Positions 2,447 to 59,759 of a DNA stretch of 64,000 nucleotides are shown piece after piece. Position 1 is the first letter of the stretch; every line of letters starts with the position of its first letter. The stretch covers positions 8,695,501-8,759,500 of the forward strand of contig OU612070.1 of the NCBI GenBank assembly GCA_914767715.1. Direction: 5' to 3'. The notes beneath the pieces were generated by a model, which saw only the letters and a program-made list of their open reading frames with translations, ran no database searches and was not told where the DNA came from. The translations under genes were made by a program, and so were the position numbers. Source of the DNA: Membranipora membranacea (Eukaryota; Bryozoa; Gymnolaemata; Cheilostomatida; Membraniporidae).

Positions 2447-3200
2447 CCAGCAACCTTTCCTGTTACATAGTCAGTGTTGGAGTTCAAGTGTAGGGTGTGT
2501 TCTATTTTGACTCGAAGCTTGAATTCCATATCCCAGTGTAGCTCCCTTCATTCGGTCACTCTTGTCAGTTGTTGTGTAGATCACAGCGTCGTTAGAAAAC
2601 AATCTCACCTCTGTGTTGTCTTTGGATGGTAAGTCATTAATATAGGGTAGGAAGAGGATTGGACCAATTACAAAGGCCTGAGGTACACCTGATGTGACAC
2701 TGCAGTGGATTGAGTGGAATCCATCTACAGCCACCTCCTGAGTTCCTTTAGACAGGAAGCTTCTGATACATCTGACCAATGAACTCCCTGAGGGAGTTCA
2801 TTGATCTGACGACCTGACTGATTGCAACAATGTTGTGTGTTTTCTGGATGAGCTTTGAATGGTTTACCTTATCAAAGGCCTTGCTAAAATCTAACACTGT
2901 GGTATCTACCACTACCTGGTCTAGGAACTATAGTTATGATAGTTGTGAAGTCAGCTCTATCAGTTGACTCTTGTAGCTTTGTTTGCTGCAAAAGACATGC
3001 TGTTGATTGTGTAGTAGATGGTTTCTTTCGAGGCATGGCATCGTTTGGCTGGTGACTATATACTCTAAGATCTTGCTGCACAGGCAGATGATGCTTATTG
3101 GTGGGTAGTTGGCTGGGTCATATTGGTTACCTTTCTTGAAATTTGCACACTCTGGCGTGTCTTCACACTTTGGGGACAATAACTCGACCTAGGGACAGTT
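2447..3200 (-). pseudogene. decayed non-LTR (LINE) reverse transcriptase fragment
   Basis: Read on the minus strand, this segment carries recognisable reverse-transcriptase blocks. An upstream part has FKKGNQYDPANYPPIS followed by a degraded fingers/palm segment with QQHVF. A downstream part has the SGVPQ block, a GPILFLPYINDLP block and the catalytic box, which reads RLFSNDAVIY where active elements have F-A-D-D. The blocks fall in different frames (2471-2779, 2884-3081 and 2934-3179), so frameshifts separate them. Together with the mutated catalytic box this makes it an inactive copy. A 27-bp palindrome with 7-bp direct repeats (2777-2803) interrupts it. The family resembles jockey/CR1-type elements, but the clade is not certain. 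Confidence 0.8.
2777..2803. repeat. micro-hairpin insertion with 7-bp direct repeats (no. 1)
   Basis: A 27-bp perfect palindrome beginning CAATGAACTCCCT sits between two exact copies of ATCTGAC (2770-2776 and 2804-2810). It lies inside the dead LINE, so it arrived after or during that element's decay. The palindrome starts CAA and ends TTG, like the other members of the family. Confidence 0.8.
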
Positions 3201-4124
3201 GAGATAGAGGGTAGGAGCGATGGTATGAGCTGTTTAGGAATCTAGCCTTGTAGTATTAGGTTGAGTCATAGGATAACTCAGTTGCATCTGGATCTGACAA
3301 TGTGTTGGCTCTAAACTGATGTTGGCTATTGGATGGGAAATAGAGCCAATGCTATGCGTCACTGAAAATACCTATTCGTGTATATTGAAAGTAAAAGTCA
3401 GTTATTTGACATTCACTATCAGATCAATATGTACTTCCTTTCAGGTACCATTTGACCTGGCATTGGTTCTCTACCATGACAATCAGGGCCAACAAATTGG
3501 CTAATAGGATTGTAGAGTCGATTATCTTAGAAAGTGATGGCTAGTAAGTCTCAAATACAGTTTAAGATGATTTACTGATAGCGTAAACATATCATTCCTC
3601 CTGAGAACATGAAAGGAAGAAAGAGAGCGAAGAACAGCGATGCTGCGTATTCAATTTATTCTCTTGTTGAGGTGTAGTTAAAAATAATAACCCAAAGAAC
3701 CGGATGGCTAAGGAGGAAAAATTTTTAAAAAAAAAGAAGATTTGTTGGGTAATCTACATCTAAGAGTAGAGATACCAGACACAGGAGTGACAGTTATCAC
3801 CGGAGACACAAGTTCCTTATTTTTATCGGATAAAAGGAGGAAATTTGAGTCTCCTTCGGTAATTCTAACTGCAGTATCTTGTCTCCTCGGGTTGAAGTTT
3901 GAATATGACTTATAATGGCTATGAAAAATAGCCAGACTGCAAATGATAAAAGAATCTTATATTATAAAATATGGTTAGAAGAGATTTGAACAGCTTACCC
4001 TTCACAAACTGTGTGTGTGATTTCAGGTATGCTAGACGGAAACTCCACTCCTTTACATTTGGTCCAATAACTTGTTAACTACTGTTTTATGTTATGTTTT
4101 ACAGACTAGAGTGATTTATACAGA
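3201..4124. other. 5' flank of TIMM9
   Basis: No gene was recognised. The stretch immediately before the TIMM9 ATG contains a possible 3' splice site (TTTTACAG near 4096-4104), so a non-coding first exon further up is possible. The nearby 3.6-3.7 kb interval is purine-rich (AAGAAAGAGAGCGAAG) but shows no clear TATA box. Confidence 0.35.
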
Positions 4125-5395
4125 ATGGCGTTGCCTACTCCTGCAGCTGGTGCAGCCCCAGATGAGATGGTCAAACAGGTGAGATAGTGCTTATCAAATC
4201 AGGTTACCTGAGTACTTAACGTCCCTATCATTGTCACAATTACGATTGGCTGGTTACATATGTATCATTATAGCTTTGTGTCCATGCCTCAATTTTCCCT
4301 CAAACAACAAAAGATACAACCAAGGGTGCTGGATATTGATGTGTACGGAGAGTCATCAGATTAGATAAACATTGCTATAACAATTCAAGCCCTCATACCA
4401 AACAATATGTATATATGTAACTTTTAATGGTCCATCTCTAATATCTAATCGCGCATGTTGTTTCATAATAGTAATTACTGGTAATTTGTCCCGCCACTTG
4501 TTTTGGCCCCACAACTAATTACGTTGTAACGTCCAAGAATTCTAAACATAATTATATTACTTATATCTGATATAGTTCCGAGAGTTTCTGCTGACATATA
4601 ATAAGGTGACAGAAATGTGTTTTGGTGCCTGCATAAACAACTTCACATCTAGGAAACTAGTCGATAAAGAGGTATGTACTTTGTATTATAAAGAATGAGA
4701 TGTCAGAGCTTGATTACTCAACTGACAAAAATATCCATCCAAATTGAAGTTTTGACGTTTCTCAAGAAAACAATTTGATGTAATGTTATATTTCTGAAAA
4801 CTATTATTCCTCAGTATCGTAAAGAAACATTTGTATACCAATGCTAAGGTAAAATGGTTTTCAGAAAGTATGACATGATGAGTTGTCTCCTCAGATCTGG
4901 GCAGGACACAACTCCCAGTGCACCACCCATCATTTACTTAGTACTGCTTGTCCCAGATATACTAATCTCTTACATGATACGCGCCATGACCATCAGAGGT
5001 GAGAGATCATATATGGCCCCTGTCCGGTTTTCACAAGTTGCCACCTATGGCTTTCAAAGTGACTGGAGTACTATTAGGTTTTGTGACAGTATATGTTGTT
5101 TTGTACATTGTGAGATGAGTAGGTAACGACCAATAGAACTGTTATATTTATTGTTTAAGTTTGGAACAGTAAAGTAACTATTCGGTATTAAAGTGAAGGG
5201 ATAGAAGTCACATAGATTATTCGTCACTGGTCATGTCTGTCTGTTCTCTCATAGATTGGATGCACCAACCATTGTATGGACAAGTATCTAAAGATGACTC
5301 AAAGGATATCTCTGAGATTCGCTGAACACCAAGTACAACAGAATGAAGCCGTGCTCGGGCCCATAGCTCAGCAACGTAAGCAAGAGAATAAGTGA
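4125..5395 (+). CDS. TIMM9: mitochondrial import inner membrane translocase subunit Tim9
   Basis: Three exons join in frame: 4125-4178, 4576-4671 and 5255-5395, giving 96 aa, close to the usual ~90 aa. Exon 2 reads [19 protein letters not shown] and exon 3 reads [20 protein letters not shown]. Together they supply the twin CX3C motifs (CFGAC and CTNHC) and the [10 protein letters not shown] block typical of Tim9 rather than Tim10. Both introns are phase 0 with GT-AG ends. In known systems Tim9 pairs with Tim10 as a hexameric chaperone that escorts hydrophobic carrier proteins through the mitochondrial intermembrane space, and that role is inferred here. The ATG at 4125 is the first in frame. 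The N-terminus ([14 protein letters not shown]) is a little longer and more Ala/Pro-rich than common. There is no sign of damage. The gene converges with the receptor gene downstream. Confidence 0.95.
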
Positions 5396-9380: not shown

Positions 9381-12310
9381 GGCAATGCACTTAGTTGATG
9401 GTTGTTTGTGGTTCGCTGCCTAATGGCACATTGTAGATATATTGCGTTTGACAGTAATTTAAGAATCTGTGTTGTGCTTCTTCCAGTCTGTAATAAAATA
9501 GTACAGTTTACATCATTAAAGCATGTGTCAAATCCAATTTCTGTAATGTTTAGGAACGCTGATACTGAACAGTTGATAATCAAGTAGAATAACATACTGG
9601 TTTAGAACTACTCTATTACCCTTGCCTATGACGTGCTATCAAAGAATAGATTCTTGTTTATTGACTAAAACTATTGAAAGTTGTGCTAATTACCTAGTGC
9701 AAAGCAATGAACTCCCTCTCATTGTGCAAAGTCAGTGGCCAAATTCCTTTAAATTTTTTTGCACTCAACTCTGGAAAATTTACAACTGAAATTTTTAAAA
9801 ACATACCGTGGAAATTGATTCAAATTGAAAAATAACGTAATCGTGCCTGTCAGAGGTCAATGTCTTTTTTTTGCTTTGTAAAACTCTAGACTTGTCAACT
9901 ATTACTGCTATGAGTATTATATATCCACTTCACACGGAAATAGAGGTGTCATATAGCTCATACCACTCAGACATTGACTTCATGGGTGCTCTATTGGAAT
10001 TTGGAACCAGCAAATTTACTCAAGGTGATGAAACAGCTGCTCATCATTGCAGGAAACACATATCGTGTCTCAGCATCATAGTAGTGGGTAATGTTTTTTT
10101 CATAAGGACCTGTAAATGACTATCCCACAATGCATTTTTTGGGAAATCCCAATTACAGATCTGGCCCAGTGTTATCTTCTTGTTTGAGTTGTATTGTGGT
10201 TTATGTTAACATGCCCTTTTGACAACTATTTTGGTATGTGAGACATGTAAGACCTTGATGTACCTCACAAAACCTTTTACCTATAAATATGTATTATTAC
10301 AAAATTAGGTGATCTTTGACAGTTTGTGGGCTTGCTTATTTCGGAATATTAGTGAGCATGCTGTTTTTAAAACTTTTGACAACGTGAACAACAACCGACC
10401 TGTAATAAATCAATGAGTCTGTTCACTTTCATTGTTGTGAAAAAATTTTGCAGAAGCGTATCTGCAACTTTGTAATAAATGTGCTGCAAGGTTGAAGATG
10501 ATATACATACAGTGTTTATGTATTGTAAAGGTCGACATCACCCCTGAGCAATTAACTAGTCTGACTTGAGATACAGCTATTTTATTTCTATTATTGGGAA
10601 TGGACAGTGGACTACACGAATAAGCCAGATAGCTAAGGAGCCGGGTACATTTTTGTAAGTAACTGTTCGGAAATACATCATTCTTTATAATTTGATCAAT
10701 TTGTGTGAACCTATAACCCAATGACAAGTGAAAATGTGCCAATGTACCCAAAGCTAATTTGCTGCTCTGATACTTTTCAGTCGAACATAATGAAATTATG
10801 GAATATTGACCATATACAAGAATAAATCGCAAGTTTTGTTCATAGTTTCATGCCGAACACTTCAACCCTTTATTTTGCCTGTGTTGGGTAATTTTGAGAT
10901 GCCCTCTCTCTCCCACGATCGTTCGCATGTCATATTTACATCACTGCAATTCTGCTGTGTACGCTACTCATACATAATATATAATATTGAAATATTTGTT
11001 TTAGATGTGACAATTGTGAAAGACAGTTCAGTTAGTGGGACTTGGTCACTGCAGTGCTTTTGTCATCCTACAGCTACATTTAAGTCAGGGGGAATGTTGG
11101 GTCATAGGGAGAAGAAAAGATTGCCACTGGAGAAAAATAACTGAGACATTATTTAGGGCATCTTAGGTCATATCAGGAAAGAATTTGATACATTGAATTG
11201 AATAATAAACATCAACCAGATGATGCTGCACTTTTTAGGGTGGAAACTTTAGTAAAATTTATCAAGGGCTTGTTGAAATATAAAGAAGAAGAAGAGCATG
11301 CTTTATTCTTATTTATGTCACAAACGAGCGCTCCTATTACAAATTTTCACAGATTAGCAAGTTATGATTAAAAATTGCTAACGTCTTATCAAGGAGTAAA
11401 AGACAGCTCCTTGGACTAATAGCGGTGAAGCAATGAAAAATGCGGAAACATCAGAAATTCTGGTATGCAAAACTGCATTACGATAGTTCATCACCAAATT
11501 ACTTGATTCAGTTTATAACTCACCAACTCTTCGTTCTAATTGCAAATTAACCGCAATTTGAATCCATATTTAATCCGCAGAGGATTTCTTCTTGTTTTAG
11601 CAGATTGGTTCAGTTTGTATTGCCAACCCAATGCTGTCTGCTAACCATGTTTAAATAATGTTTATTACGTGTGAATGTATATAAATGTGTATGAATAAAT
11701 GTGTGTGCAGTTGAATTAGAAATATCTCAATTATTGGTCATAGTATTGGATTATCCAATCAAATGGTTTAGGTGTGAGAATCTCATTATCATTTTTCAAA
11801 GCTAAATATCAATTCTGCAAATCATTGAATTTTGGCAAACTATATAGTGACAGCTTATATTATATAGACCAGATGCAAAAATCAAAATTCTCTCGGCAAA
11901 CAAATTTTGGAGGGGGAGAGACGGCTGGGCCACAAGAAAACCCCTTTGTTGAGCCCAAATACCTAGTAATATTTATCATTGTGTATCAAAATCAATCACA
12001 ACTGAGATGGTCACGGTATCCCACGCCACGTTCATGATATAATCTTAGTTTTGTAACTCGACTGAAACCATACAACATGGTCTAAGCTTGTTTATCACAT
12101 GTTCTCATAAGTTGAGGGCTGGATTGATTTTCCAGTATCTATAATTTCCTGTTTTGGTTGTCTGCCTGTGCCAGTACATGTAGGAAAAGTGGAAATGTCT
12201 TTGGCTTGTGTGATGTTTGATGTTTGTTTATTTAGACATTTCCGGTATCACTCCTAAAAAGGTTGACAAAATTGAAATGTTTACATAAAAATTGATGGAA
12301 AAATATTGCA
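9381..12310. other. intergenic region upstream of the receptor
   Basis: About 2.9 kb of AT-rich sequence. The longest frame (10410-10832, minus, 140 aa) has no family motif or repeat partner and a composition typical of non-coding DNA, so it is not called. The receptor's promoter should lie just above 9380, but no TATA box is convincing. One micro-hairpin insertion occurs at 9705-9724. Confidence 0.4.
9705..9724. repeat. micro-hairpin insertion with 7-bp direct repeats (no. 2)
   Basis: The 20-bp insert CAATGAACTCCCTCTCATTG lies between exact copies of TGCAAAG (9698-9704 and 9725-9731). It is almost identical to the insert at 31899-31919, although the flanks differ. Confidence 0.8.
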
Positions 12311-12763: not shown

Positions 12764-12803
12764 AGCTTGTTAAGACAGCTGAAGCTTCACAGGCTCGTAG
12801 TTC

Positions 12804-22722: not shown

Positions 22723-22805
22723 AGGAAGCCTGGGCAACTCCAACTTATTAACATATCAAGTCAGTAGGTGGTAGAGCTACACCAACTGAGAGATGAGGGT
22801 TAGCT

Positions 22806-22832
22806 CAATGAGCTCCCTGAGGGAGTTCATAG
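22806..22832. repeat. micro-hairpin insertion with 7-bp direct repeats (no. 3)
   Basis: A 27-bp hairpin starting CAATGAGCTCCCTGAGGG sits between exact copies of GTTAGCT (22799-22805 and 22833-22839). It differs from the insert in the LINE at 2777-2803 by only a few bases. It lies in the likely 3' UTR of OPA3. Confidence 0.8.
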
Positions 22833-23267
22833 GTTAGCTGCTGTTGTGAGTATTTTCTGTGCCAAAAAGAATTCCTTTTTTTACAAATACAATTAAATAG
22901 GTGGTTGAAAACTGAAAATATATTTAGTGCTGTAACTATGATTTTGCTATTACATACCTTCTACTGTAAGAATAAATATCAAGCAAGTATCTGTTTCATT
23001 CCAGTTTGCTGGGAAGGGGGGATAACAGGTTTTTGTTGTAGCTTAGTCACAGGCGAGGGAGAATATTATCACTTTGTATTATCAATTTACATGAACCAGG
23101 TTTTATTGTACAGTGTGATAATTTGTCTAATCTTCACTTTGTCACATGTCAACGCTGACAGCAAAAATTAATCCGCCTGTGTTTATCTGTGCAGATAAGG
23201 CTTTAGAGATGGCGTATTTATAAGTTGTAGTCAGATTTTTTAGTGATCAGGTTTTACCAAAGATGGG

Positions 23268-24733: not shown

Positions 24734-27700
24734 TCACACGAGTACTTTGGCTACACCATCTGCTCCCGCGCTGGCTATATATGGTTTACTTGGATGGAAC
24801 GCTACATCAAATATGCTCTCATCAAACTTTTTCCTATGTGAGGTAATCTCTTGGACGCATGTCTTTGTCTCCATACTCCATAATCGTATCGAACAATCAT
24901 GACCTAGAAAATAAAGAGGCTAACAGTTAAGCTGCGAGATGATATACATCATGACTATCAGACAATTCACTGTTACCATATTGCTAGGATCACACAATGA
25001 GTTATGCAGAAGGCTGGTCTTATTTTTCTGGATTATTGAATTTATACCCTAGTGCAGAGGAGTAAATATTAGCTAGAGATTAATTGAGCTATTTGGCAGT
25101 GATTTAATGTTAGCCAGTGCCGATTCCCTTAGCTAAGGTGGGAGTTCATCTTTAAATAATTGAGGTTCAGTAAAATATTAGCTGGCACAAAATTTTCTAT
25201 TTTTCAGGCATATGCGAAATGACAGCTTTTGCCGACTGCAAAAACTTAGTTCCTCTAGACTATCATCGTTTATCTGATTAACGGATCAATGAACTTACTT
25301 CCTGAGAGTAGATAGAGGCCATTGGGATCGATAGCTAGAGATGTGACAGAATCTAGATGAGCTACCATAGTGTCTATTGCCTGTCCGCTGGTGCTGTCAA
25401 AGAACCTTATACTTCTATCCTCGTGGGCTGAGATAGCTACTGGTAATGTCGGGTGAGAGATTAACTTATTAATCCTGGGGCTCACTCCAGTTTCTATATA
25501 AGTATAAAACACAGCAGTTGGGTTGAAGTGAATATGAAATTACTATGAAGTCAATATGAAGTTACTATGAAATTACTGTACATTATGTAATGAGAAATTT
25601 TCTTTGTACCAGCAGGGAGGGTACCAGTAATGAATTGTTCAACCCAGAAGTTTTACAAGTCGTGCTCTCATGAAAAATGCAATAGAGCACAACTCTTAGA
25701 TATCATCATTCCGTCATGTTGGGCCTGAGTGGTTATCACGAAGAATAATCCACAAAACCATGACCAATCAAATAAGGCACATATTATCTTTCCATTCTAA
25801 CACATAGACTTAGCCATGAGTAGATCAGATTGGCATCTAGCATGATATGAGTAACTTTTTTAAGGTTTCAACTCATCATGTGTGCAAACAATAGGTCGAA
25901 TAAATATTATCTAATAATTATTGTCATTTTATCATCATATGTAAGCAGAAACGAGGATAGAGCAGGCTTACCTGGAGGTTGGGTGTTGAATTTAACAACT
26001 TGTTGTCCGGTACTCAGGTCGAACACATACACATTACCCGAACTGTATGCAGCCATCATGTGGTTAGGATCACTGGCTAGGAAATCTATACATGTGGGGA
26101 CACCATCATCTGTAAACACAACAGAGTGCAATGAATTACCATAAACATATAATAATTATATATAGTATATAGATTGGTACATTTATGCAAATTACTGACC
26201 GCTCATGATTCAGATGATATCACCTTATTCATCAATCAGATAGATACTATGTATTAAGTGGTCCAGGCAATAAAATTGTATGTTAAACCAAGGAGTTTGG
26301 AGTTCCGACTCCTTGATCCAAATTTTATTTATGACAGAACTTCCCAAACATTTTCAGCAAGCTTTGCGGCAATTTGAGATTGTGCTGTCGAAGGCACATA
26401 TGAAACCTTCATACTTCCGTATCAAGCCGGGAAGCTGTCAGTGTCAAATGTCAAATTCCTCATCAAAGCCCTGAAAGACTACCCAAAGTGCAATGCATGT
26501 TATAGTCAGGATGTTACTTATGATACGTTATGTCATATTCACATGGTAAAAAATTCAATGTTTTTTTTGGGATGAATTATTGATGGTGGAAAGAGTTTCT
26601 CCCATAAGGGAAGGTAACTCCCATTCTCTACATTATGATGTCAAAGTGAACAGGATGTGCTTGTTACCTATATTGCACATCATGTACACTGACTGTGACA
26701 CCATAATGCAGAGAATGAGAGTGGTTGCACTCTTTAATTGAAAATATCTGATTGTAGTTACCTTCATTGGGAGGGAGGTATGTTTTATCGAGCTGCATTT
26801 TAAGTCCAGGAGACCAGAGCCGGACAGTACCATCAGCAGAGCAGGATAATAACTGTACTCTAGTACTGTGTATAGCTAATCCCCATACAGCATCTGTGTG
26901 AGCTACTAATGTATCCTGTAATATACTGGAATCTACAAAAGAACGCACATGTCTAAAAAAAATAGTTAAATACTACAGCAATCAATATGATTCCGTATAT
27001 TGTAATTTTTTCAGGACAATACAAAGAAGTGCTACTGAAGAAAGGGGATTTGTCAGTCACCGTAATGGAGACATCTGGGGCCAAATCATCGCAACCACCT
27101 CACTTCACACTCATAATTTCATTTTCTATAAAGTCATCCATATTTGATGCGTTGTATAATTTCATATGAATGAACTGAGGTAGGGAACTGTTTTGGCTGT
27201 TTTCGTCTGGAAAACTGACCTGGAAAACTATAACTGCAACCTACCGTATGAGTCATAGGGATCTATGTTAGAGCTGGGCAGATTCCAGCATCTAATGGTG
27301 GAGTCTACTCCACCACTAAAACATTCCTCTCCAGTGGCTGACATGGCCAGACAAAGTACGGGACCCTGGTGTGCTCTAAATGTGTACACTGGCTCAACAT
27401 CTAATGCTGTCGCTCTGTATACAAAACAACAACTTATTAGGATGAGATGGAAAACAATGTAATATACACATAGTATTTAGACAACCTATCTACACATATA
27501 AACGCTGTCAAATAGTTGCCTCGACTCCGTTAAAATAAACTGAAAGATAGCTTTTGTGTCTGTTGGAGTAATCTATGTCTTCATCTGAGACAGTAAGATC
27601 TATGTTTGATATCATACTGAAACTCAGTTTCAATAGATGATGATCGGAAAGATAACTTTTGGTGTCTTCTGGAGTAATCTGTGTCTTCATTTGAGACAGT

Positions 27701-30700
27701 AAGAACTATGTTTGATCATACTGAAACTTGCTTAGTTTCAATACATAATGATCCAATTCCATGGTATGCATTGCTGGTCGATTGTCTTTGAGCACAGAGC
27801 TCAGCTTCCTCAATAGTTGTTATTCTATACCCCTATCCAATTATTGTATTTTTTTTGGGTAAGATTATACACATGTAATGTTATATTTGCCAGACAAGTG
27901 ATTTAGTAGATAATCTCGAACAGGACCTATCGGTGATGATTGAGTCTTACTTTTTAGTAGCGACTGTTTTCTGGAGATTCCACAGTTTCATAGTGTGATC
28001 CTCTGAGGCAGTGAGTAACACTGGCTCCACTGGATGGAAGGTTAATGCTCTCACCCCATCAAAGTGACTATCAAAAAGAAATCAATGACCTGTCATAATA
28101 AATGTTTTCAATCCTATGAATCAGCAGCGAGACATTGCACAATAATAATTTTCAATATTATCACAGCGTAAGGATATATACTTACTCTGCTGTGTTATGG
28201 AAAAAACAGACTGATGAGCCAAGGAGTTAGAGTTACTCTTACTCCTTGGATGACCTTCGATGAACTAAACAGTAAGTGAGAGCATTAGCTAAATCATGCA
28301 TTGCAAAGTTACCATGACACCTGTCAGCACACCTGTCAGCACACGCTAGTGTGCATCTTTATCATTTTTCTGATAGGAATTTTCTGATACAAATTTTCGG
28401 ATATTAATTTTATAATACGATAAAAATGACGGGCGCTTGCAAAGTGTACTATGTTAATCGCATCATATCTCTGACACCATATAACTTTATGATGCTGGTA
28501 TGATAGAAGTACCAAACAGACACATAATCAACTTGTGTTTTTGACTAACACATACTTGACATTCCTGACTACTTTGATGATGGGTCAAGCTTGTACTCTT
28601 AAAAAAAATGTATTGGTCCAAGATCCATCTGAGTACTATACATAAGGTCAGGTTGACTGGTGTAAAGTGACAATGAGTTGACGGGAGTATTTTGACGACA
28701 AGAGTGGGGCTCACCTTCTCAATGTATATTTAGCATTCCATGTTTTTCTAGTATTAGCGTCAGCTGCACCGGCCATCTCAAACTGAGCAGTATTATCTGT
28801 CTCATCATTAGCGACAGTAATATCAGCTAGATCTCCGAGACCGAGGGCTGCAGCCTCTAACTGTCGATCTAATGAGGCACCGGGAGGAAAACGCATCATC
28901 AGTTCCGAGGATTTAGCTCCTTCGCTTCCTCTTCCTCCACCTAGTGACGACAAACACAGAAATTATCAATCAGGAAATAGGAAAAACTCATTGATTACAC
29001 TACCGACTGACGCCTCATTACTTAGGTATACAATGTCTTTTACATAATACAAACAATGCCATATCATCAACCAGCACTAGGACAACAACCTGGTCAATTT
29101 GTATCATCAATCTCTTTTCATAGATTCTTGTATGGAGATTGTATTGCAAGGCTTACTCAGCTTTTCAAAGTTGGATATTGTATTATGTACAGCTGACATG
29201 CCATTACATCTTTTCCACCATAATTAGCAAAGTGCAGCGGACAGACAATGATGAATATCCATATAAATATGTACAGATTGATTAGACTAAGCTCTCACCG
29301 TCGGTTTCATCCGAGGGACTATCATCAGAACCCAGAGTGGCTATCATAGCCTGTAGATCATGCTTCTTAGGTCTCTGTGAGTTGTCATGTTTTTTATGTA
29401 TTCTCTCTTTCTTATATTGCTCTATTTGCATGTTCAGTCTCTGTTGATCGAGTGGCCAGTCAGTATTCTTTGCCCATTCAGACCCATCTCCTGTATGATA
29501 TAAACGTCTCAAATTATTCATTACAGTTGAAAATAATACTTTCCGGCCTGACAACAGCCATTTCCAACAGCTTTGATATACTGCACAATGTTATAACAAA
29601 ATTAAATTGTCTATGGTAACATAAAAAAAATAATAGAAATCTTATAGTAAGTAAGAATAGGATAAAGGTCCCTCAGGCCTAAAACATGGTTCTATTACAG
29701 ATCACAGCCCCTTCTAAGACTAACAATCAAAAAAAGTTTTAGTCTCATCAATATAAGCGTAAATCTAAGTTATGTCTCACACGCTGACTTTGGTTGACCT
29801 TTGATATCTACATATGCATAGGGGTAACCTTACCGTCAGTTCTGCCATCATCTGCGCTGTTCTCTGAGACGAGAAAGTCAAACTCGGCCAGAGCCTCTTC
29901 TTCATCATCCAGCCCCTCCTCCTCATCATCATCTGCTAAAGTTTTAGCTCCGCCCACTCCACCAGGACCTCCGGGGAGTGACTCAGCGATACGTCTCCTC
30001 TCCTCCAAATCATCGTCATCATCATCACCATCGTCCTGACTATCCTCCTCATCACTACAACAAAACGTGACAGAATCTTGAGATTACTCAGTGACACGAA
30101 TACCTTAGTTAGAAAAAACTGTTTTGAAATAAGGAGTTATGCCCCTTTCTTCATGTTCTCATTATTTACGCGACGTCGTTTCTTGTAGACAAGACGGTAT
30201 TACTGATGGGAGTAGATTATGATATGGAGTTATCGACCTCAGAGTTGTAAAAAAGACAGGGATTATTCAATCATCAATGTTTCTCTACAATCGATTGATC
30301 AAACATCTAAAAAAAGGCAACAACATCCCCTTTTCAATGAGACATTTTACTATTTTTTGATAAACCATACAGCACTTACCTGTCGTCAGCGTCATCGATA
30401 ACAGTACCACCAGTCTGAGGAAGATACTGTAACTGTACCTTCATAACATCTGTACTGTCCTGATCCATCATGGCTGCCGTCTCAGACTGTATTGAAGGTG
30501 CAGTTATTATCATTCTATAAAATTATGATAGAGAATTTATGCCTTGTCATCATACTCATGATGTGACTGACATGGTTTGATCTGGAGACTTTGCCAAGCT
30601 CTAGAGTGACATTGTTGCTCCTTGATACTACTAACAGTATCAAGGAGCAACGATGTCACTCAGAAAATTGGCAAAGTCAACTATAACCTACCCACTGTAA

Positions 30701-34326: not shown

Positions 34327-34915
34327 CTTTGGAAGAGATGGCCATTTGCATCTGTGTATATCATAGACGGCGCTTTCAAATAATGTTTATTTGAGGCTAT
34401 ATAGTTTGTTGTAACAGGCAATTCATACATGCAAGACATGGTTTTGTTGATGGTAATAAATTCATGATGTCTATGGCCCCAATTTCCTTTTTTCAACTGA
34501 TAAGTAATAGCTGGTATGTAAAAGCCTTACAGTATAAGGCTGCTACACTTCCAAAATTCAAGAGGTATGGATAGGTAACTCTTAATTTTAGAAAAATTGT
34601 CTAACATTATCTTGATAATGAAAGCTTGCAGCGCAGTAGCCTGTTAACATACAGAATATCACATTACGACCTAGGAAGAAATTTCTAGATCATGCTATGG
34701 GGATCCTCGTTATCTGTAAGGAAAAACAAATATATAGGTAGATGTATTCTTAGCTCTGTTTACAAGTTGTGTTTGAGACCAAACTATTTTATACGTGATA
34801 CTTTTGCCGCCTCAGAGATCTTTTTCAAAATGTTAAAAGTGTGTTGAGTCTGTATTGATTGTAAAGTGATGCTGTAAAAGCAAGATATTGAGCAACATCA
34901 GGGAGGGTGTCCAAC

Positions 34916-34933
34916 CAATTAACTCCCTCATTG
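34916..34933. repeat. micro-hairpin insertion with 7-bp direct repeats (no. 6)
   Basis: The 18-bp insert CAATTAACTCCCTCATTG lies between GTCCAAC (34909-34915) and GTCCTAC (34934-34940), a six-of-seven match. It is upstream of striatin. Confidence 0.65.
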
Positions 34934-35629
34934 GTCCTACCAGGCCGCATTGATAGCTGAGATTTCATTTTTATCATAGTGTGATTGTTCAAATAAACTC
35001 TCATCTCATGTAGGGATTTTTGTGCCATATTCTTATATGTTTTATAAAGCTTGCTTTTCGATGACAGAAATCCACTTTGAAGGCTGTACAGTAAGGAGCA
35101 GAAAGGGGCACAAAATACTGCTAGATGATCTATTAGTATGACAAATTCTTGACGTCGTTCAATTTCAGAGACATGAAATGTACCACATATGGCAAATTCC
35201 AATATTGAATATGAGATTAAGCTAGATCAAGTTTGAATTACCTGCACTACAGGTCGCTCCCATACTGGTGTGTGAGTCGCAACACACACTCGAGTTTGTG
35301 TTTTGCCTCGTATTGGTAAGTCTAAGTGCTCAGGCGGCTGCAATGCAAGTTAGTGGCATTACATTATGAACCACTCAAGAAGCTGTTAATGTAAATGCGA
35401 CCAACTTGCATTTGGGCAGTCTGAGCGCTAAGACCATCTACAGAGATACTATGATGGGTGGCAAAAGATTTTAAATATTATCATTTTTCGATTTTGATTC
35501 TGCTTCTTTTTTTTATTAACCTGAACAACACAAGCATGGCTCTTTTTTTTTCTTTTGCCTGGTGTCGCAGAATTTTGTTGTGATATAACTTCATAGCAGA
35601 ATTCAGATACTGATAAATGTTTGTTTGTG

Positions 35630-38650: not shown

Positions 38651-39940
38651 TTAAGGGAATAGAGGGACGGAAATTTGTCATGATGGATTCGGCAACAGCG
38701 TCTTATACATTTTTAATTATGATGGGATTAAACGATGAAATATTTTGATCGACGACCAACCGAAAGTTAGCTCTATATTTTTTAGTGAATTTAAATAGAT
38801 GATAGCACCTGAATTGTACCAACTTCAAGGTCTTAGGCAGAAAAATGCTGCTAAACAATAATACAAACAGAGCAGGCTAATTAGAGCTAGAATCTTACTG
38901 GTCACTTTCACCAATAGGATTAAGAATATTTATCATACAAGGGCTTGTATTTTTATGGTATTTATTGGATGTACCCATACTGTGAATATAAACTAAGCGA
39001 CCATTATAACATGGGCTTCCCTAAGTTTATGAAGGTAATCCTCAGTCATGACAGGCTTTTGGCATGTTTGTGCAGTACACTGTTGACTGATATTGATGGC
39101 GGGAATTTATTTCAATGAAGCTGTGATAGTTTTGGGTAAAGTTATAATTACTGTTGTTACATATGTTCAAGAGAATTCTGACAGTAAATTATGAGGCACT
39201 AAATAGTTTCTAGTGAACATTTAGCATTTGTTGGGGTGACTAGAAAATTACATGAAAACATTCACTAGCCAAAGTTTGAGTGTTAACACGACTGGCAACT
39301 GTCTATGCATCTATATCAATTCTCAAGTACACTCTCACTAATGGATCCATTTAGGAACAAAGCAGGACAGTCAGGCCTGCTGCATGGTGTAGAAAATAAA
39401 ATTTCTCTGGTTTTACCAGTAGTCAAAGGTAGGTCCAAGTTAATACATTGATTAGTAATTATTTCAACTTCATAATTACTCACATCTGGTTTATTGTGGT
39501 CATATCCAATGAAACAGGTGTCGTGGAGGACTTGGGTCAATACAAGGACATTCCCTAATTCTGTTGACCAGAAGTGTGCCATTTTTTTACATGTAAATCC
39601 ATATGATATAACTCTTTTAAATAAAACCTGGATAGCTTATAGCCAATGAAGCCTACCTAAAAATGACAAAAATTTGGTGTATAGCTTGAAGGTTGGAAAT
39701 TTAAACAAGGTATATACTATATACCTGGTACCCTGCTCCAATTAATTAAATTGCCTTTTTGTGATCGGTTTATTATTATTACAGGTGTCTAAACAATTGT
39801 TTTATGTATGTTTTGACAGGAGGGGCCCACCTTTTGGTCTGGTAGACAGGGAAATTAGGATAGTAACAAACCGCAAAATGACCACTTTTTTATTTTACGC
39901 AGAAATCCAGAAAAATTGGCAATAAAATTGTTGTTTTAAC

Positions 39941-39958
39941 CAAGGAGTTAACTCCTTG
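39941..39958. repeat. micro-hairpin insertion with 7-bp direct repeats (no. 7)
   Basis: The 18-bp perfect palindrome CAAGGAGTTAACTCCTTG lies between exact copies of TTTTAAC (39934-39940 and 39959-39965). This is the cleanest example of the CAAGGAG subtype. Confidence 0.8.
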
Positions 39959-40236
39959 TTTTAACCAATTGCGGAAATCATTTGCAGAAATCATTTGCAG
40001 CTAGTTGAAACCAAGTATAGACTTTATAAAACTTTGGGAAATTGATATACTTCCATCTGTAAATGATAAAAAGTAGCTTGAAAAACAAGATCAAGTTCAA
40101 CTATCGATTTGAGTTTGTGTTTTTAATAATTTAGGGTGGCAAAAGGTTTTCGTAATAGCTTCAATGACCTTGATTAATTAAGATCGGGATAGAATTTTTA
40201 ACTGTGTAGCTCGAACAAGTGATTCTCCACGTAACA

Positions 40237-40287: not shown

Positions 40288-40316
40288 ATATCACAGTCTC
40301 TATTTTGTGATTGTAG

Positions 40317-43300
40317 ATTATTTAACATCTTCATTGTTTGGAGAGTGGATTAGCGGACTTTCAGCTCCTCATGTATTTTTCACAGTGGTAACATTGCTGG
40401 TGTTATATAACTGGCCTGTATGGGATAGACATCTGCTCCCTCCTGGCCCTTGGCCTCTGCCATTTGTAGGGAACACTTTATGGATGGCATCTGCTGCTGA
40501 CTTATCCAAAGAATTATATGGTGAGTTATCTTTGGGCTGCTGTAGGCCTGAATCTCAACAATGTTGTTGTCCCATGGAAGGAGGGATACCAACCCTCCTT
40601 GGTTGACTCGTGACCTAGTTTGAGCCCCTCCCTCAGACTCTTGTCCCCATTGCCCGGCCTCCCCTGGCCAGTGCCCATTATATGTTTCTTATCATATACC
40701 GGTAATGCAGCTTTGGCAGTCTATTGACATATCCGATTATATTTCCTGTAGACATCATGCCAATTTTGTTTTCTTTATCAGCACCTAAACCAAAGTTCTA
40801 AGAATCTTGCTGCAAATTAGTTTTTTTTGCAATACCTCTTTGGGTCCAAATACAAATGTTGACAAGTAGAGACAACATATTCGAATTCGTAGAAAAGTAT
40901 AATTGGCTAGAAAAACCCTCAATAATGAACTCGGTGTTGTGCAAAAACACCTTTTCTGGCTAGACGGATTATAGCACTGGATGATTTGACAAGTGACCTT
41001 CAGATTGTGAAACCTGTTCATAATTACCGCTAACAGGTCAATGTCCATTACTTAACCGATTTTGGGATCAGAAATAGTTATTTAGTTTCACTCGATGGAA
41101 CTGGGTGGGGGGGGGGGCAGGTGTCTTGACCTCCCTAGATCAGGCAATACTGGCAAGGCAAACTGTAGCTGCAATTACAGGAGAGTAATTATTACTTAGG
41201 CCTATTTTAACTCATTTATATAAATAATACATCAGTCCAAAAATTCTGCTCTGTGAAAAAGCCAAGATTTCAATCTAATTAGATGTTGAAATACTGGATC
41301 ACACTTTCACATCATGCATCATTTGGCTTCTGAAACAATCATTCTCTTTCTTTCTAGGCCTGCGGAAATTTTATGGGGACGTCATCACTTTGCACCTACC
41401 GCACGGAGCTAAGTGGATAGTTCTGAACAGTCCTGAGGCTATTCAAGAAGGCTTCGTCAAACATGCAGAATTTCTCAGTGAATTCCACAGCACAATAGTT
41501 GGAGCAATCCATGAAGGTGATCATTATTTGCCTGAGAATAGAATCAGAAGTGAACAAAAGGTCAAAATAACTTTCTCTCATGAAAGTAAAACAATACGCT
41601 ACAAGTATAAAGGATTTTTTGATCTAATGGCCAAAGTAGTCTGATCATTTGGTTTGACTGGATATATTCAGGTTGATCAGCTGGCGAAGAAAAGCTATTA
41701 TAATTTCAGCTACCAATCGGGTTCATGCTGCTGATGTCTTTGCATGGAAACCGTCTTCTAGAGAGAAGCGAAAGGCTACATTTCAGCTCAGTTTAAATCG
41801 AGTTTAAAATGCCCACAGAAGTCTTAAAGTCTGAGCCATGATTAGATTGTAATAATTGAAACAAATATTTCAACAAAATCTTATGATTATCATGAATCCT
41901 CAGCTAGAGCACAAATTTTCAAGTGGGAGACTTGGGATCAAAGTCACACCTTGAGATTTTGCTATCACCGATATTGACGATGACTTCCTACCCTGTGTGA
42001 CCCTCAAACTCAAGCATAATATCGCATCCAGTTCAGTCAGTTACATACAAAGACAATCTCTTACATATATGTACAGTGTTCATGCCAAATATAAATTGAA
42101 CTTTAGATAACGAGCCACAAGGATTATGGAAAGAGAAAAACAAGAGGGTGCTGAAAGTTGTACGAGACCCTCTTATCGGTAAAGCTATTTTCTCTTTTCA
42201 TCAAAACTTTCGAATTATCTAAAGCGGTTGAGCTAGAAACGTATGAATTTATTTAGTTTCATTCGATCGAGTTTAGAAATGAAAAAAACTGTATAATATT
42301 TGATTTGACCTGGCAAATAATATCCAAGAATCAAATATGCAAGTTCAACTTAGTCCATCAAACTCTTTGCTTTATCAGATGTTCAAACTTTATAATGATT
42401 GCCTTTCAAACTAAAAATAGCCAATACCAATTTTTTCATGTGTTTTCTTTTATATTCTTTCACATAGGTGGCAAAGGAATGGATACAGCTATAAGTGATG
42501 AGATATCTCATTTTGTTGAAGAAGTTGAAGCAGCCGATGGAGCCCCAATCGATCTGATAGAGTTGCTGCCAAAAGTGACAGCAAACATAGTGACAATGAT
42601 GTTGCTTGGTACAAGGTTTGATTACAGCGATAGAAGGCTGTTGGACCTTCAATTTGGAAAGTTTGCTGGCCTCAATATGAAATCGAGATTTGTTCCTCTT
42701 ATCAAGGTTAGTGATTACCCTCTCTCCTGTTATGGAGGCACAACTCCAAAACTTATCAAATGTCATCATACTAGAAATCGTGCATATCATACAATGTTAA
42801 ATTAAACGCGGCAAGTCAACTTAAAATCTTTCACTCATGAGCTGAAGCTTTCGATCAAGCTTAATTTGTAGAAGCCAATTGATTGCCAGAGATTGCAACT
42901 GCTAAATTCCGCTTGTATGCTTTGACAAACGCAACATACCAGCGCTTAATAATTCGCGATTTCTTGTTGCGATTTCTTACAAAATCAAAATCTTTACATA
43001 GAAGTTTTCATGTTTCCATAATTTTGAGTGACCTAGCGAAGGGTGCTCGCAAATTAGTTGTTCTCATTTCTGATTATCACAGCATGGCAAATCATATCAT
43101 GAAGCAAAAGACCAGGCCAATAAAGGTATAGAATTTGTTGAAGAGAAAATCTCACAGCGTCGCCGAGACTTTGATCCAGGAAACTTATCCAATGATTATA
43201 TCAACAGTTTCCTAATGGATTATCCTGAACAAAATTCTGATAGAAAAGAAACAGGTGAGACTCTTAAAATACTTGTCTAGTTGATGAAACAAGGAGATGC

Positions 43301-44753
43301 AACAAATTAACTCCTTGCTCTCATGTGCTGTTTTTGTCATCCTTGTAATTATTGTTATTGCTATTATTGTTGCTGTGATTGTTGTTATTATATCTCTTAT
43401 TTCAGACAGAGTGTTGTTGCGGCATGTGACGGGATTCTATCTAGCTGGCACAGATACAACTTCACACAACCTGTACTGGAATATTCTGTATCTACTACTT
43501 AACCCAGATGTTACAGATAAAATGTATAGTGAGATTCAAAATAAAATAGGTGGGTTTCAAATTAAAATTCCTCGGCTCCTGGTATTATGCTGAGATGCTG
43601 GAATTTTCTATTTCTTTTAAATTATGGTCACTGAACATACCCACAACATCAGCTGTGGGAAAAAGCTAGCAGTACTTGTCGACTATGATTTCGGCATTGA
43701 GCAGATTGTAGCCCTTACCAGTATTAGGATCTGAGGCCGAAAAGTTATTATAAAATTAGTATGTTACGATGAAGGAATTCAGTAAACAGCGATCACATCT
43801 AGCTTCAATGTGTTTGTGTGTGTGACAGGTACTAGACCAGTGAGATACACTGACAAGGACATGATGCCGTACACATCAGCAGTGATGACAGAACTACTGA
43901 GAGTTACACTGGTGGCATCTTTGTCTATTGAGCACGAGGCTAAGGAAGATGTGATGGTGTGTGGTATCAAGATACCAAAAGGTAAACGTCTGTAATGGCG
44001 ACCATTGGGACTTTTTGGATTGCTCTTCTTGTTCAAGCGACATAGTTTATGGAACCTCAGAGCTTTTACCAGCAAAATGAGTCATGTAATAGCGAGCCGC
44101 TTTTTTGATGCATTTTTAATGTGGCACTTTTATTAAATTGAAAATTGAAATTATGAACAGTTTGATGTAATAATAACTCAGATTGCCCCCTATGATATTC
44201 AGGGAGTCGAGTGGTTGCAAATTTACACTCAACGTGTCATAATCCCACTGTATATCCTGACCCTGAAGTTTTCAATCCGGAGCGATTCTTAGATGCAGAG
44301 GGAAACTTTATAAAACCAGAGCAGATGTACATGACACCATTTGGAGCAGGTATGTAAATAATCTGTCCTCAACAAAATCACTATTGTATTCCACAAATGC
44401 TACACATGATGTTGTGCTACATCTGAGAGTGTGTCAACATTTGTATCAACCAATATGTTGTGGATTTCAATTCTATCAACTTTCAACGTCGGGAATAATT
44501 ATATTAATATCTGGTTTCAAAAATCAAAGCTTATCTTAAATATTTTAATTTATTTACTTTTTTATTTGAAGGTCGCAGACAGTGTGTATGTAAACATTTA
44601 GCAAAGTCGGAGCAGTTTATGTTGCTTGTGACTATCATACAGAAGTTCAAGTTGGAGCTCGGGCAGACAGAGACCCCGTGCTTAAAAGGGAGTGTAAAGC
44701 ATTTAGTGAAAGCTCCAGAGAAAAACTATCTCGTCAAACTTACAAATCGTTAG
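40317..44753 (+). CDS. cytochrome P450, CYP2-like, with damaged or missing C-helix exon
   Basis: Eight exons join in phase: 40317-40520, 41358-41516, 42468-42706, 43083-43254, 43406-43549, 43829-43981, 44203-44349 and 44572-44753, about 465 aa against the usual ~490-500. Exon 1 has a membrane anchor (FFTVVTLLVLYN) and the LPPGPWPLPFVGN hinge. The I-helix reads FYLAGTDTT, the K-helix has ExxR in MTELLR, and there is a NPERF motif. The heme loop FGAGRRQCVC keeps the ligand Cys but has Cys for the usual final Gly. Microsomal monooxygenase activity is inferred from family. The block with the C-helix W-x3-R is absent from the joined product. A 92-base segment at 41710-41801 looks like its remnant but has no good donor. 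No in-frame ATG precedes exon 1, so a short 5' exon is unlocated. It may be a pseudogene or alternatively spliced. Confidence 0.8.
41710..41801 (+). pseudogene. candidate decayed P450 C-helix exon
   Basis: After a TTTCAG acceptor in the right phase, 30 codons read ..DVFAWKPSSREKRKATFQLS.., ending in LNRV. The R-K-A-T-F-x-L run is reminiscent of the C-helix region (W-x3-R-R-F-x-L) that is missing from the joined P450. Its length matches the ~30-residue shortfall. It then meets TAA, and the only GT nearby (CGA/GTTTAA) gives a wrong phase. A one- or few-base lesion at the donor would explain this. Confidence 0.4.
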
Positions 44754-45659
44754 CAAGCATGTTTTTTGCCTCATAGACTTGCTAGCTTTTTAATTGTGTC
44801 ATGTTGACATAACGCATAGACATCGTCTAATTCTATGACATAACGTGATATGGATGCAAGCCTCTTTCACTTCCAGCTCAGTCAGACGCTTTCAGGTCTA
44901 AACCATTGAATTCCATATCTGGAATAGCATCATTAGCTTTCTTTTGCAAAACAAAGGGCTTGCAAAAATAGCCAGTCCCTAGTAGCAATCTAGAAATGCC
45001 CTAATCATCGACACTGTATGGGGTATAATTACTGTTTGCAATTTTGTAAACAAGACAATTACTCAGGCTAATTATTCATGCTACTAGGGACAGCCAATCA
45101 GATAACAGCCAGATGGGTCCCTGTGTTTAGTGTCCTAACCGTATAACGCTATGATACTATTTCCATTCTAAGAGAAGAATCTAATTCAGTGGTCTAAACA
45201 TATCAGTTAGAACCTCCAAGGTTTATCCATCATCACCATTGTGAACATGTTTGCTTCCGAGAGCTCTGCTATTTGATCAGCAAGCTAAGAGTGTGAAGAG
45301 TATCGCATGACTTGTTATGTCTTTCATTTTCATTTCCCTTCATCGATGAACATTATTATTTTTACACATTTTTATTTGGGTCTCTATATCTAGATTTATC
45401 GTAGTTTAAGCTGTATTTTTGCTCTTTTACTCTATGCCAATAAGAATGATTGAGCTCTAGCACAAAAATGTCCGTTTGCCAAAAGTTGCATTCTTGACAA
45501 GTCTTTGAAAGCCTCCAATTCTATCCTATCCTATCACCCACATTGGGATGACTAAATATTTCACAATCAGTTGAGATTGAGGCGTAATACATGTTTCTGT
45601 TCTTCATTTTTGCATAGTTATGAACATTATTAATCAGTTAAAATAGTATTGAGTTTAAA
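44754..45659. other. P450 3' flank
   Basis: About 0.9 kb of AT-rich DNA. No canonical AATAAA was found close to the P450 stop. No gene was seen. Confidence 0.4.
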
Positions 45660-46945: not shown

Positions 46946-47058
46946 TTACAAATGATCTCTTTTACTACTCATTGGTTTAACTTGTTTTGATAAATACCTT
47001 TTTTTTTCTTACCTCAATGATTAACAAGATAGCTGGGGGTTCCCCTATAGGAGTGGGG

Positions 47059-54240: not shown

Positions 54241-54259
54241 TGTTGTTAGTTTGTTATTT

Positions 54260-57860: not shown

Positions 57861-58270
57861 TTTTGCTCAGTGTAATACTTTTGCTGTGGGTGTTATCTCA
57901 TAAACATTATTGTTACGTAACACATTCCATAGCTCCTGGCTTTGGAGTCCACCTTAGTGTTTTTATATTCTGTGATAGCAATGATTGCTTTGCTCGAAAG
58001 CCCACCCAAGAAGGGATTTATATATCATAATCCACCTGATATGATTGATTGCAGCTTTGTGGGCAAAAAACCCTTCTGGTATTATTGAGAGTGTTTTCCT
58101 ACTGTTTACAGGGTGTTTCCCTAGATTAGAGGGCAAAAACTCGATAAACGTCCATGGAATGTTTTTGCATGGCTATGACATCCGAAGCGTCATAACTATA
58201 GAGGATATATAAGAGTGGTTGTATGGAAAACTGACATACGTCTGTTTCCACCAGAACTGATAAATATTCA
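57861..58270 (+). promoter_or_regulatory. promoter module D, gene body lost
   Basis: Contains TGCTCAGTGTAATACTTTTG (57865-57884), GAGAGTGTTTTCCTACTG, GGGTGTTTCCCTAGATTAGA, TATGACATCC (58174-58183) and a TATATAAG box (58206-58213). The 5' UTR start (ACTGACATACGTCTG, CCACCAGAACTGATAA) is recognisable, but no signal-peptide exon follows. Confidence 0.6.
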
Positions 58271-59741
58271 AATCAGAACATATAGTTGATGCTCATAAGA
58301 TAAATCTTCTTATTCTGTGATAAGGACAACAGGAAGTGATAGCCATATGGATGATGATTTTTGTAAACACTTTTATAAATGTGCTCGGAGAATCAGTATA
58401 CCCTCTGATTCATTATTGATACCAACATAACTATGAATGTCTGTCTGGGAATCATCTCCATTTTAGATAAACAACTGTGAATATTATTTCACACTTCCTT
58501 ATTTAGGTATATATACACTTCTATTTGGCAGATAAATAGGGTTATAATTGACTATACTGTTGATACGTCCCATGCAAAGCTTTGATATATGGGTCTTTTA
58601 AAGTTTTTAGGAAAGCAAGAATCAACCAATGCCAATACGGAAATATTCTCATAGCAATGGAAAAAAAACTTTGCACATTGACATTATAGAATCATTTAAC
58701 TGATTCAGGTGGTCTAGAGTATGTTATATCTCCTGTTACATGTTAACACTAAAGTATTTAGTAGATGACCTTTTTCAACATCAGTAGCATCAATGACTTT
58801 TAGTCTGCTTGGGAAATTGCTGATCAAAACATGACATCAAAAGTCCCATGTTAATTTGTTTTATAAACAAGAGTAAGCTTTACTTGTAATAATGGAATTT
58901 GGTCTAAAAGATGCATCAGTCGGCATGTAATTAACGACTAGTGCTATTTCACCAGATTAACGAGTGAGAATTAAACCAGTAAGAGCTTTTTAACATTTTA
59001 AAAGATGTGATGTTTGTACCGATAAAAATATATGAAATCATAACGTAAAAATAAATCCTGGTACTCAACAAACAGAAGTTGTCGTTAGCATTTGCATTTT
59101 CAATGCCATACATATTCTATTCTCCTTCCTCAGAATAATGTGAAATGCTTGAAAGTGTTCCCATTTAATAAGTTTATCTAATCCAGATAGAACCACAGCT
59201 ATCGTTCTGCTTAGTTATTGTGCATCCTGGAATATTTTCCTGCAAAATCAATCAGCTGATAATGATATTGTTTTTATAATACTAATGTCTTGCCTATCAT
59301 AGGAAGAGCTTGAAAATGGAGCGAATACAACTAGATTCTACTATTTTTATAGTGCTAGTACAGATATGTTTTATTGCAAAGATATTATGTTAGCTGGTAT
59401 CAAGAAGTTGGAGTTACTTGCTGGTATCAAAGACTTCGAAATAGCAAAGTCGAAAAAAGATTGGAATCAAAACAAACTTGCTACTATGACAGAGCAGCTT
59501 GAACGTATTTGGCATGTCTACCTGTGGTGGTATAAAAATGAGAAAATAAACTTGAACAAAACACATGATTGAGTCAAACTAGAAATATAATTGGACGGTC
59601 CCTGATTGTAAGGCTGAGTCTGGTCATGATATATCACAGATTATGAGTGGAAAGCCATTAAACATTATAGTTTGAGGTATGCTGAGTGATGTGTATAGCA
59701 CTATCTGTATGTGTATATAATAATTGTCTGTCTTGTATAGC

Positions 59742-59759
59742 CAAGGAGTAAAATCTCCG
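59742..59759. repeat. micro-hairpin insertion with 7-bp direct repeats (no. 8)
   Basis: The 18-bp insert CAAGGAGTAAAATCTCCG lies between GTATAGC (59735-59741) and GTATAAC (59760-59766). The homologous site in unit C (55915-55931) has the same insert, diverged, so the insertion predates the unit duplication. Confidence 0.6.

What the first reader, a model, noticed from the sequence alone, without database searches (positions are those of the whole stretch)
2777..59759. Micro-hairpin insertions of 18-29 bp with 7-bp direct repeats
Inserts at 2777-2803, 9705-9724, 22806-22832, 31899-31919 and 39941-39958 are each flanked by a perfect 7-bp direct repeat, a different one each time (ATCTGAC, TGCAAAG, GTTAGCT, CTCAGAG, TTTTAAC). 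Those at 28220-28248, 34916-34933 and 59742-59759 have six-of-seven flanks. The inserts themselves are related: they start CAATGA or CAAGGAG, have an AACTCC/GGAGTT core and end TCATTG or CTCCTTG. Related cargo with unrelated duplicated flanks is what transposition leaves. They may be excision footprints of a TIR transposon with 7-bp target duplications, or an extremely small hairpin element that moves on its own.
Basis: partly seen in the sequence, partly recalled or inferred. Interest (0 to 1): 0.88.

Follow-up and report, generated by a model that had tools for sequence, protein, structure and literature searches.

The report
Thousands of jumping-gene excision scars
The tiny hairpins in this animal genome look like repair scars left where mobile DNA elements cut themselves out, rather than tiny mobile elements themselves, and they are numerous enough to serve as a natural record of how the germ line mends broken DNA.

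Summary
All eight inserts are where stated: five have perfect and three six-of-seven 7-bp flanks. Strict 7-bp hairpins number 4, against a mean of 0.175 and a maximum of 2 in 40 shuffles. A ninth lies at 59401-59420. Genome-wide, 3084 places match CAAGGAGT..ACTCCTTG (reversed control 4), and CAATGAACTCCCT..TCATTG matches 735+738 times by strand (control 0).

The parent of the CAATGAACTCCC type was found: ~886-bp non-autonomous elements with 33-bp inverted repeats (TIRs) and 7-bp duplications. In 82 scars no end keeps more than 20 of 33 TIR nucleotides by exact match (7 of 164 ends could be 21-25 with one mismatch). The commonest product is the join with the longest microhomology. One CAAGGAG scar has near-identical empty-site sister loci.

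The anatomy matches Drosophila P-element excision scars with a Galileo-like 7-bp target. P-superfamily membership is inferred: no transposase-bearing copy with these ends was found.

The parts
2770..2810 (.). Scar 2777-2803 (CAATGAACTCCCTGAGGGAGTTCATTG) with 7-bp target duplication ATCTGAC on both sides
9698..9731 (.). Scar 9705-9724 with duplication TGCAAAG; one of the 1-nt microhomology joins
22799..22839 (.). Scar 22806-22832 with duplication GTTAGCT
28213..28255 (.). Scar 28220-28248 of the CAAGGAG type, duplication 6/7 (GATGAGC/GATGACC)
   Evidence: pattern type counted
31892..31926 (.). Scar 31899-31919 with duplication CTCAGAG; the modal product CAATGAACTCCCTCTTCATTG (3-nt microhomology)
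34909..34940 (.). Scar 34916-34933, duplication 6/7; the same 18-bp insert recurs with perfect GTATAGT flanks at L017:1076
39934..39965 (.). Scar 39941-39958 of the CAAGGAG type with duplication TTTTAAC
44807..44845 (.). Hairpin 44815-44837 (CATAGACATCGTCTAATTCTATG) with 8-bp repeat ACATAACG; shares its CATAGA start with three 8-bp-duplication P elements of this genome; as a class, 8-bp hairpins are not above background
59394..59427 (.).
59735..59766 (.). Scar 59742-59759, duplication 6/7 (GTATAGC/GTATAAC)
11390..11413 (.). Possible eroded scar CAAGGAGTAAAAGACAGCTCCTTG, flanks 5/7
   Evidence: weak
26289..26315 (.). Possible eroded scar CAAGGAGTTTGGAGTTCCGACTCCTTG; flanks only 3/7
   Evidence: weak
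43290..43317 (.). Possible eroded scar CAAGGAGATGCAACAAATTAACTCCTTG; flanks only 1/7
   Evidence: weak

Best explanation
Each hairpin is the scar of one cut-and-paste excision. A DNA transposon with inverted ends inserts and duplicates a 7-bp target (T favoured at position 2, A at position 6, as in a GT..AC palindrome). Its transposase later cuts about 18 nt inside each TIR, leaving TIR stumps on the two chromosome ends. The cell joins the stumps by end joining, often at a 1-3-nt microhomology and sometimes with filler bases. Because the stumps are inverted copies of each other, the joined product is automatically a hairpin between two copies of the target. Shown here: the element with these ends, the 7-bp duplication, the limit on retained TIR, the microhomology bias, empty sites for one scar (CAAGGAG type), two one-sided copies that fit interrupted gap repair. 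Inferred: that the enzyme is a P-superfamily transposase, that the cut lies near nt 18, and that the CAAGGAG type arose in the same way from a related element.
For: Non-autonomous elements with TIR CAATGAACTCCCTCTTCCTCAGGAATAACAACA, 881-892 bp, perfect duplications ATTGGCT, CTGAACT and AATTGAG; 40 left ends of 97-100% identity among the 40 of 150 candidates scored. Drop in exact TIR length: 2553 13-mers, 348 18-mers, 68 30-mers. Of 164 ends in 82 scars none keeps more than 20 of 33 nt by exact match, though the pattern admitted longer stumps. Of 55 pure joins 40 have microhomology, expected 9.2 under uniform joining (p about 8e-20); the 3-nt product has 23, expected 3.5. L078 and L082 are 19 nt of TIR, 2 or 7 nt filler, then 292 or 248 nt of the other end. 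Empty sites: L038 against three other loci, single GTTTGAG, 96.7-98.9% over 180-181 nt, gap-free in two loci and one gap in the third. Drosophila P: 17-nt stumps inside a 31-bp TIR (PMC7776569, passages) and duplication-stump-filler-stump-duplication products, there in repair-mutant flies (PMC2895639, passages). Galileo of the P superfamily: 7-bp duplication GTAGTAC (PMC2775673, passages); of 29 hand-listed duplications here 22 have T at position 2 and 20 have A at position 6.
Against: No transposase-bearing copy with these ends was found: facing exact TIR ends lie no more than 2163 bp apart, and none of the 68 lies within 66 kb of the 134 listed P-transposase matches, a capped list. The four P elements whose ends I resolved have 8-bp, not 7-bp, duplications. 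The full-length CAAGGAG parent was not found. 27 of 82 scars have filler or mutations that simple joining does not explain. With one mismatch allowed, 7 of 164 ends could be read as keeping 21-25 nt, so the limit is not perfectly sharp; TIR nt 15-25 is nearly palindromic, which makes some of these ambiguous. Only 15 of 29 duplications have both T2 and A6. No second individual was available.
Confidence: 0.88

Rival explanations
1. The hairpins are themselves mobile micro-elements, 16-40 bp long, moved by a transposase supplied elsewhere.
For: One 21-mer recurs at many sites (23 of 82), with different 7-bp flanks where flanks were read.
Against: The recurring product is the one predicted by the longest microhomology of the parent TIR; many others are varied, and a full-length parent exists. 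In the CAAGGAG type 50 listed places have 33 different products. Stumps of about 18 nt per side would overlap in a 16-27-bp element (inference).
Confidence: 0.03
2. They are excision scars, but of a transposon outside the P superfamily with a 7-bp duplication.
For: No P transposase was linked to these ends; resolved P elements here have 8-bp duplications.
Against: CA...TG ends, a ~30-bp TIR, a stump of about 18 nt and a 7-bp target with T2 and A6 favoured fit P and Galileo. The genome is rich in P transposases (134 matches), and one 8-bp hairpin in the window starts like three resolved P elements.
Confidence: 0.12
3. They are end-stage, internally deleted MITEs rather than scars of completed excisions.
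For: Internally shortened copies exist (L078, L082; a 541-bp exact-ended copy).
Against: Loss does not look graded: most exact-ended pairs are 863-892 bp (11 of 17), few are shorter, while more than a thousand are 19-49 bp with short stumps. The 49-bp limit is set by the search pattern, so lengths between 50 and 270 bp were not surveyed.
Confidence: 0.04

Closest known systems
Drosophila P-element excision repair junctions (end joining after P{wa} excision, PMC2895639)
   Same: Target duplication, TIR stump, optional filler, TIR stump, target duplication; 1-3-nt microhomologies and insertions; stump length set by a staggered cut (passages)
   Different: 8-bp duplication and 17-nt stumps there, 7-bp and about 18 nt here; those were recovered in an experiment with repair-mutant flies, these lie in a genome assembly in the thousands
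Galileo (P superfamily, Drosophila; PMC2775673)
   Same: 7-bp target duplication with a GT..AC consensus (GTAGTAC; passages)
   Different: Two of the three Galileo copies tabulated there have TIRs of 575-610 bp (a short one has 10); the element here has 33 bp
P elements resolved in this genome (L061, L063, L064, L066)
   Same: CA...TG ends; transposase-bearing loci; a CATAGA hairpin with an 8-bp repeat lies in the window
   Different: 8-bp duplications and other TIR sequences
hAT (Ac/Ds) excision footprints
   Same: Leave a changed target duplication after cut and paste (recalled)
   Different: Recalled: these keep only a few bases and little or none of the TIR

Membership tests
Excision footprint of a TIR DNA transposon | Parent element with the same ends in the genome | tested here: met
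   CAATGAACTCCC type. CAAGGAG type: parent not found.
Excision footprint of a TIR DNA transposon | Target duplication kept on both sides, different at each site | tested here: met
   not every scar still shows it
Excision footprint of a TIR DNA transposon | Empty site has one copy of the target | tested here: met
   One scar of 35 gave informative sister loci: L038 (CAAGGAG type) against L047/L062, L048, L050; not tested between individuals, and not met or unmet for the CAATGAACTCCC type
P superfamily | CA...TG TIR of about 30 bp | tested here: met
   33-bp TIR
P superfamily | 7-8-bp target duplication, GT..AC preference | tested here: met
   7 bp; T2 in 22 of 29, A6 in 20 of 29 hand-listed duplications; the symmetric consensus is palindromic by construction; Galileo GTAGTAC
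P superfamily | Long staggered cut inside the TIR (17 nt in P) | tested here: inconclusive
   Stumps fit it: at most 20 nt exact in 164 ends, 7 of 164 possibly 21-25 with one mismatch; two one-sided copies break after nt 19. No biochemical test.
P superfamily | P transposase encoded by a copy with these ends | tested here: inconclusive
   134 P matches in the genome (a lower bound), none within 66 kb of the 68 exact TIR ends; no long copy found
Self-mobile micro-hairpin | Conserved interior shared between insertions | tested here: not met
   Interiors vary and follow microhomology, although one product makes up 23 of 82

The most novel reading that the evidence does not exclude
In this genome the normal fate of a P-type insertion is to end as a scar: germline excisions are mended mostly by microhomology-mediated (polymerase-theta-like) end joining rather than by copying from the sister, so scars outnumber surviving elements many-fold, and related 7-bp TIR families have left several thousand of them. 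The scars would then be a genome-wide, datable archive of germline double-strand-break repair and a mutation class in their own right.
Probability: 0.4. Interest if true: 0.75.

Novelty: new member of a known kind. Interest (0 to 1): 0.55.

Why it matters
I know excision footprints of P-type elements mainly as experimental products in flies (recalled, and PMC2895639). Here one genome appears to hold thousands of natural ones, and for one type the starting ends are known, so the outcome of each break can be read: resection, microhomology choice, filler. That would let germline end joining be measured without breeding the animal. It also warns that short hairpins flanked by 7-bp repeats can be mistaken for regulatory hairpins or tiny mobile elements.

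Tried and rejected
Rejected: the self-mobile micro-element (varied interiors that follow microhomology; too short for two internal cuts); graded MITE decay (though lengths of 50-270 bp were not surveyed); chance (shuffles and reversed-pattern controls); the idea that L061's CAAGGAGTT motifs are the ends of its P element (its ends resolved to an 8-bp ATCAAGAT duplication, about 7.6 kb).

Led nowhere: reading six frames of the 886-bp element for transposase remains (two of the nine pieces printed were scanned, no Pfam match at the cut-off); the longest exact-ended copy (L122, 2163 bp) carries a reverse-transcriptase-like reading frame, judged by eye only, and no P transposase was recognised; 35 of the 40 left-end hits were probed over 241 bases downstream and no transposase was recognised; naming the species through the window's receptor gene gave no close named relative. 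Not done for lack of answers: a right-end DNA search, a protein search with the L061 transposase and further literature searches.

Rows dropped: from the 100 rows, 15 were second-strand rows of the same place and 3 places were left out (a duplicate in a minisatellite, one whose right motif looked accidental, one complex 48-mer), leaving 82. One search dropped low-complexity inserts and duplicates. The empty-site test took 35 scars and printed only alignments crossing the joined point by at least 12 nt with fewer than 8 gaps; apart from matches within a minisatellite (L007/L008), self or duplicate-locus matches (L018, L025, L038) and a 35-nt match at 88.6% (W 59401), only L038 gave informative sister loci. 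The 29 duplications were picked by hand from several types, include one 6/7 case and some read by eye.

Full report
OBSERVATION. Five have perfect 7-bp direct repeats and three have six of seven. A strict scan (exact 7-bp repeat, perfect 5-bp terminal hairpin, insert 14-40 bp) finds 4 in the window; 40 dinucleotide shuffles gave a mean of 0.175 and a maximum of 2. With 5-bp and 6-bp repeats the window is at background (4 and 0, against 3.2 and 1.05). A looser scan adds 59401-59420 with perfect CTGGTAT flanks. One hairpin has 8-bp flanks: ACATAACG around 44815-44837.

A scan over all 16 starting dinucleotides in 346,675 bases (window plus loci held, overlaps included; low-complexity inserts and duplicates dropped) gave 29 CA..TG hairpins with 7-bp flanks against 0-3 for every other dinucleotide. 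Of the 29, 13 are centred on pattern-search hits; 5 in the window and 11 in loci were not sought. With 8-bp flanks there were 2 CA..TG hairpins, both starting CATAGA, which is not more than other dinucleotides gave (up to 4); with 9-bp flanks none; the 3 with 6-bp flanks are one tandem array.

GENOME SCALE. The window is C6:8695501-8759500 of a 339-Mb, 18-contig genome that the tool leaves unnamed. CAATGAACTCCCT occurs 1279+1274 times (reversed control 2+0). CAATGAACTCCCTN{0,30}TCATTG occurs 735+738 times (control 0); the 100 rows listed were 85 places, so roughly 1,250 places by extrapolation. CAAGGAGTN{0,30}ACTCCTTG, a self-complementary pattern, marks 3084 places (control 4). The target duplication was not checked for these genome-wide counts. 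Other TIR types were seen once or twice each: CAATGAACTAAACCT (L025:2216, L114), CAGGGAGTTT (L025:538), CAGGGAGGG (L029:1036), CAGAGACTATAG (L016:1740).

THE PARENT ELEMENT. Exact 18-mers of the TIR (348 genome-wide) include pairs facing each other at 0.3-1.6 kb. Fetching seven of these showed complete elements: L077 (892 bp, ATTGGCT), L080 (886 bp, CTGAACT) and L081 (881 bp, AATTGAG), with TIR CAATGAACTCCCTCTTCCTCAGGAATAACAACA; L079 is a copy of 1,210 bp with a nested insert and a 6/7 duplication; L078, L082 and L083 are shortened or rearranged. The left end gave 40 matches at 97-100% identity, only 40 of 150 candidates having been scored. Of 35 of these probed 760-1000 bp downstream, 25 matched the reference element's right-hand part in about the expected register, 2 matched another part of it, and 8 carried other sequence. 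Two of the 8 turned out to be copies of other length (541 and 1,294 bp). No transposase frame was recognised in these elements.

HOW THE HAIRPIN ARISES. Exact TIR prefixes fall from 2553 (13 nt) to 348 (18 nt) to 68 (30 nt). In 82 scars, no end of 164 keeps more than 20 of the 33 TIR nucleotides by exact match, although the pattern would have admitted longer stumps. With one mismatch allowed, 7 of 164 ends could be read as 21-25 nt; TIR nt 15-25 (TTCCTCAGGAA) is nearly palindromic, so some of these can equally be read as the other stump. This set was selected to keep at least 13 nt on one side and 6 on the other. The one search list holds 12 scars of 36-46 bp that keep 18 nt on both sides. Of the 82, 40 are joins with microhomology, 15 are blunt, and 27 have filler or mutations. 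Among the 55 pure joins, 40 have microhomology (expected 9.2 under uniform joining of stumps of 5-19 nt) and 23 are the 3-nt-microhomology product CAATGAACTCCCTCTTCATTG (expected 3.5). L078 and L082 keep exactly 19 nt of one TIR, then 2 or 7 nt of filler, then 292 or 248 nt of the other side, as expected if copying from a template stopped early and the end was joined. In the CAAGGAG type the 50 listed places have 33 distinct products, the commonest two 5 of 50 each.

EMPTY SITE. L038 carries GTTTGAG-CAAGGAGTTTGAAAGTAACTCCCTG-GTTTGAG in a repeated P-transposase locus. Its flanks, joined over one GTTTGAG, match three other loci (L047/L062, L048, L050) at 96.7-98.9% over 180-181 nt, gap-free in two and with one gap in L050, and the printed sequences show one GTTTGAG. 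The hairpin is thus an insertion with a 7-bp duplication. This comparison is between repeats, not individuals, and concerns the CAAGGAG type. A CAATGAACTCCC scar inside the P element of L061 is also present in that element's second copy (L085), so it was probably carried along when the element multiplied.

WHICH SUPERFAMILY. Drosophila P transposase cuts 17 nt inside a 31-bp TIR (PMC7776569, passages read), and its end-joining products, recovered in repair-mutant flies, have the same anatomy as these scars (PMC2895639, passages read). Galileo, of the P superfamily, duplicates 7 bp with consensus GTAGTAC (PMC2775673, passages read). Of 29 hand-listed duplications here, 22 have T at position 2, 20 have A at position 6 and 15 have both; read on both strands they give S-T-Y-W-R-A-S, which is palindromic by construction. 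The genome has 134 matches to the P RNase-H domain, a lower bound. However, the four P elements with resolved ends have 8-bp duplications, facing exact TIR ends lie no more than 2163 bp apart, and none of the 68 is within 66 kb of a listed P match. Membership is therefore likely but unproven.

WHAT IS KNOWN. Excision footprints are a known kind of feature. The listings showed no title describing thousands of natural P-type scars in one genome, but four further searches failed, so I make no claim of priority. What is unusual is the number, and that the parent, the scars, one set of empty sites and one-sided copies can all be seen in one assembly.

LIMITS. No second individual, no species name, no transposase for these ends and no full-length CAAGGAG parent were available. 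Exact-match counts miss mutated scars and mutated elements alike, so the ratio of scars to elements is only indicative. Listings show at most 100 places per search, for the scars from the start of contig C1, so the junction spectrum is from one part of the genome.

Noticed in passing
L025:1494-1567: Two scars in tandem sharing a target: ATCAGAC-scar-CTCAGAC-scar-CTCAGAC, as if the same target had been hit and vacated twice.
   Followed up: no
L083:106-1695 (C1:4262555-4264144): Rearranged element: 72 nt of left end, then an inverted near-full copy, then a partial direct copy, within one apparent element.
   Followed up: partly
L063, L064, L066, L061: Four P-transposase loci with resolved ends, 4.9 to 7.6 kb, 8-bp duplications; three have TIRs starting CATAGA, and L061 has weakly matching ends.
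   Followed up: partly
L079 (nested), L072 flank, window 1576-1595: A separate short element with ends CATTACAAAATAAAGTACA, seen nested in L079 and as single ends elsewhere.
   Followed up: no
window 38253-38662: Tandem array encoding a repeated peptide (DGRTKIFDGLAE-like), two overlapping frames open.
   Followed up: no
window 47273-47860, minus strand: 195-aa frame that looks by eye like a tyrosine recombinase of a mobile element.
   Followed up: no
L007/L008: A scar inside a minisatellite of GATGGAT-type units appears twice, 131 bp apart, probably copied by unit duplication.
   Followed up: no
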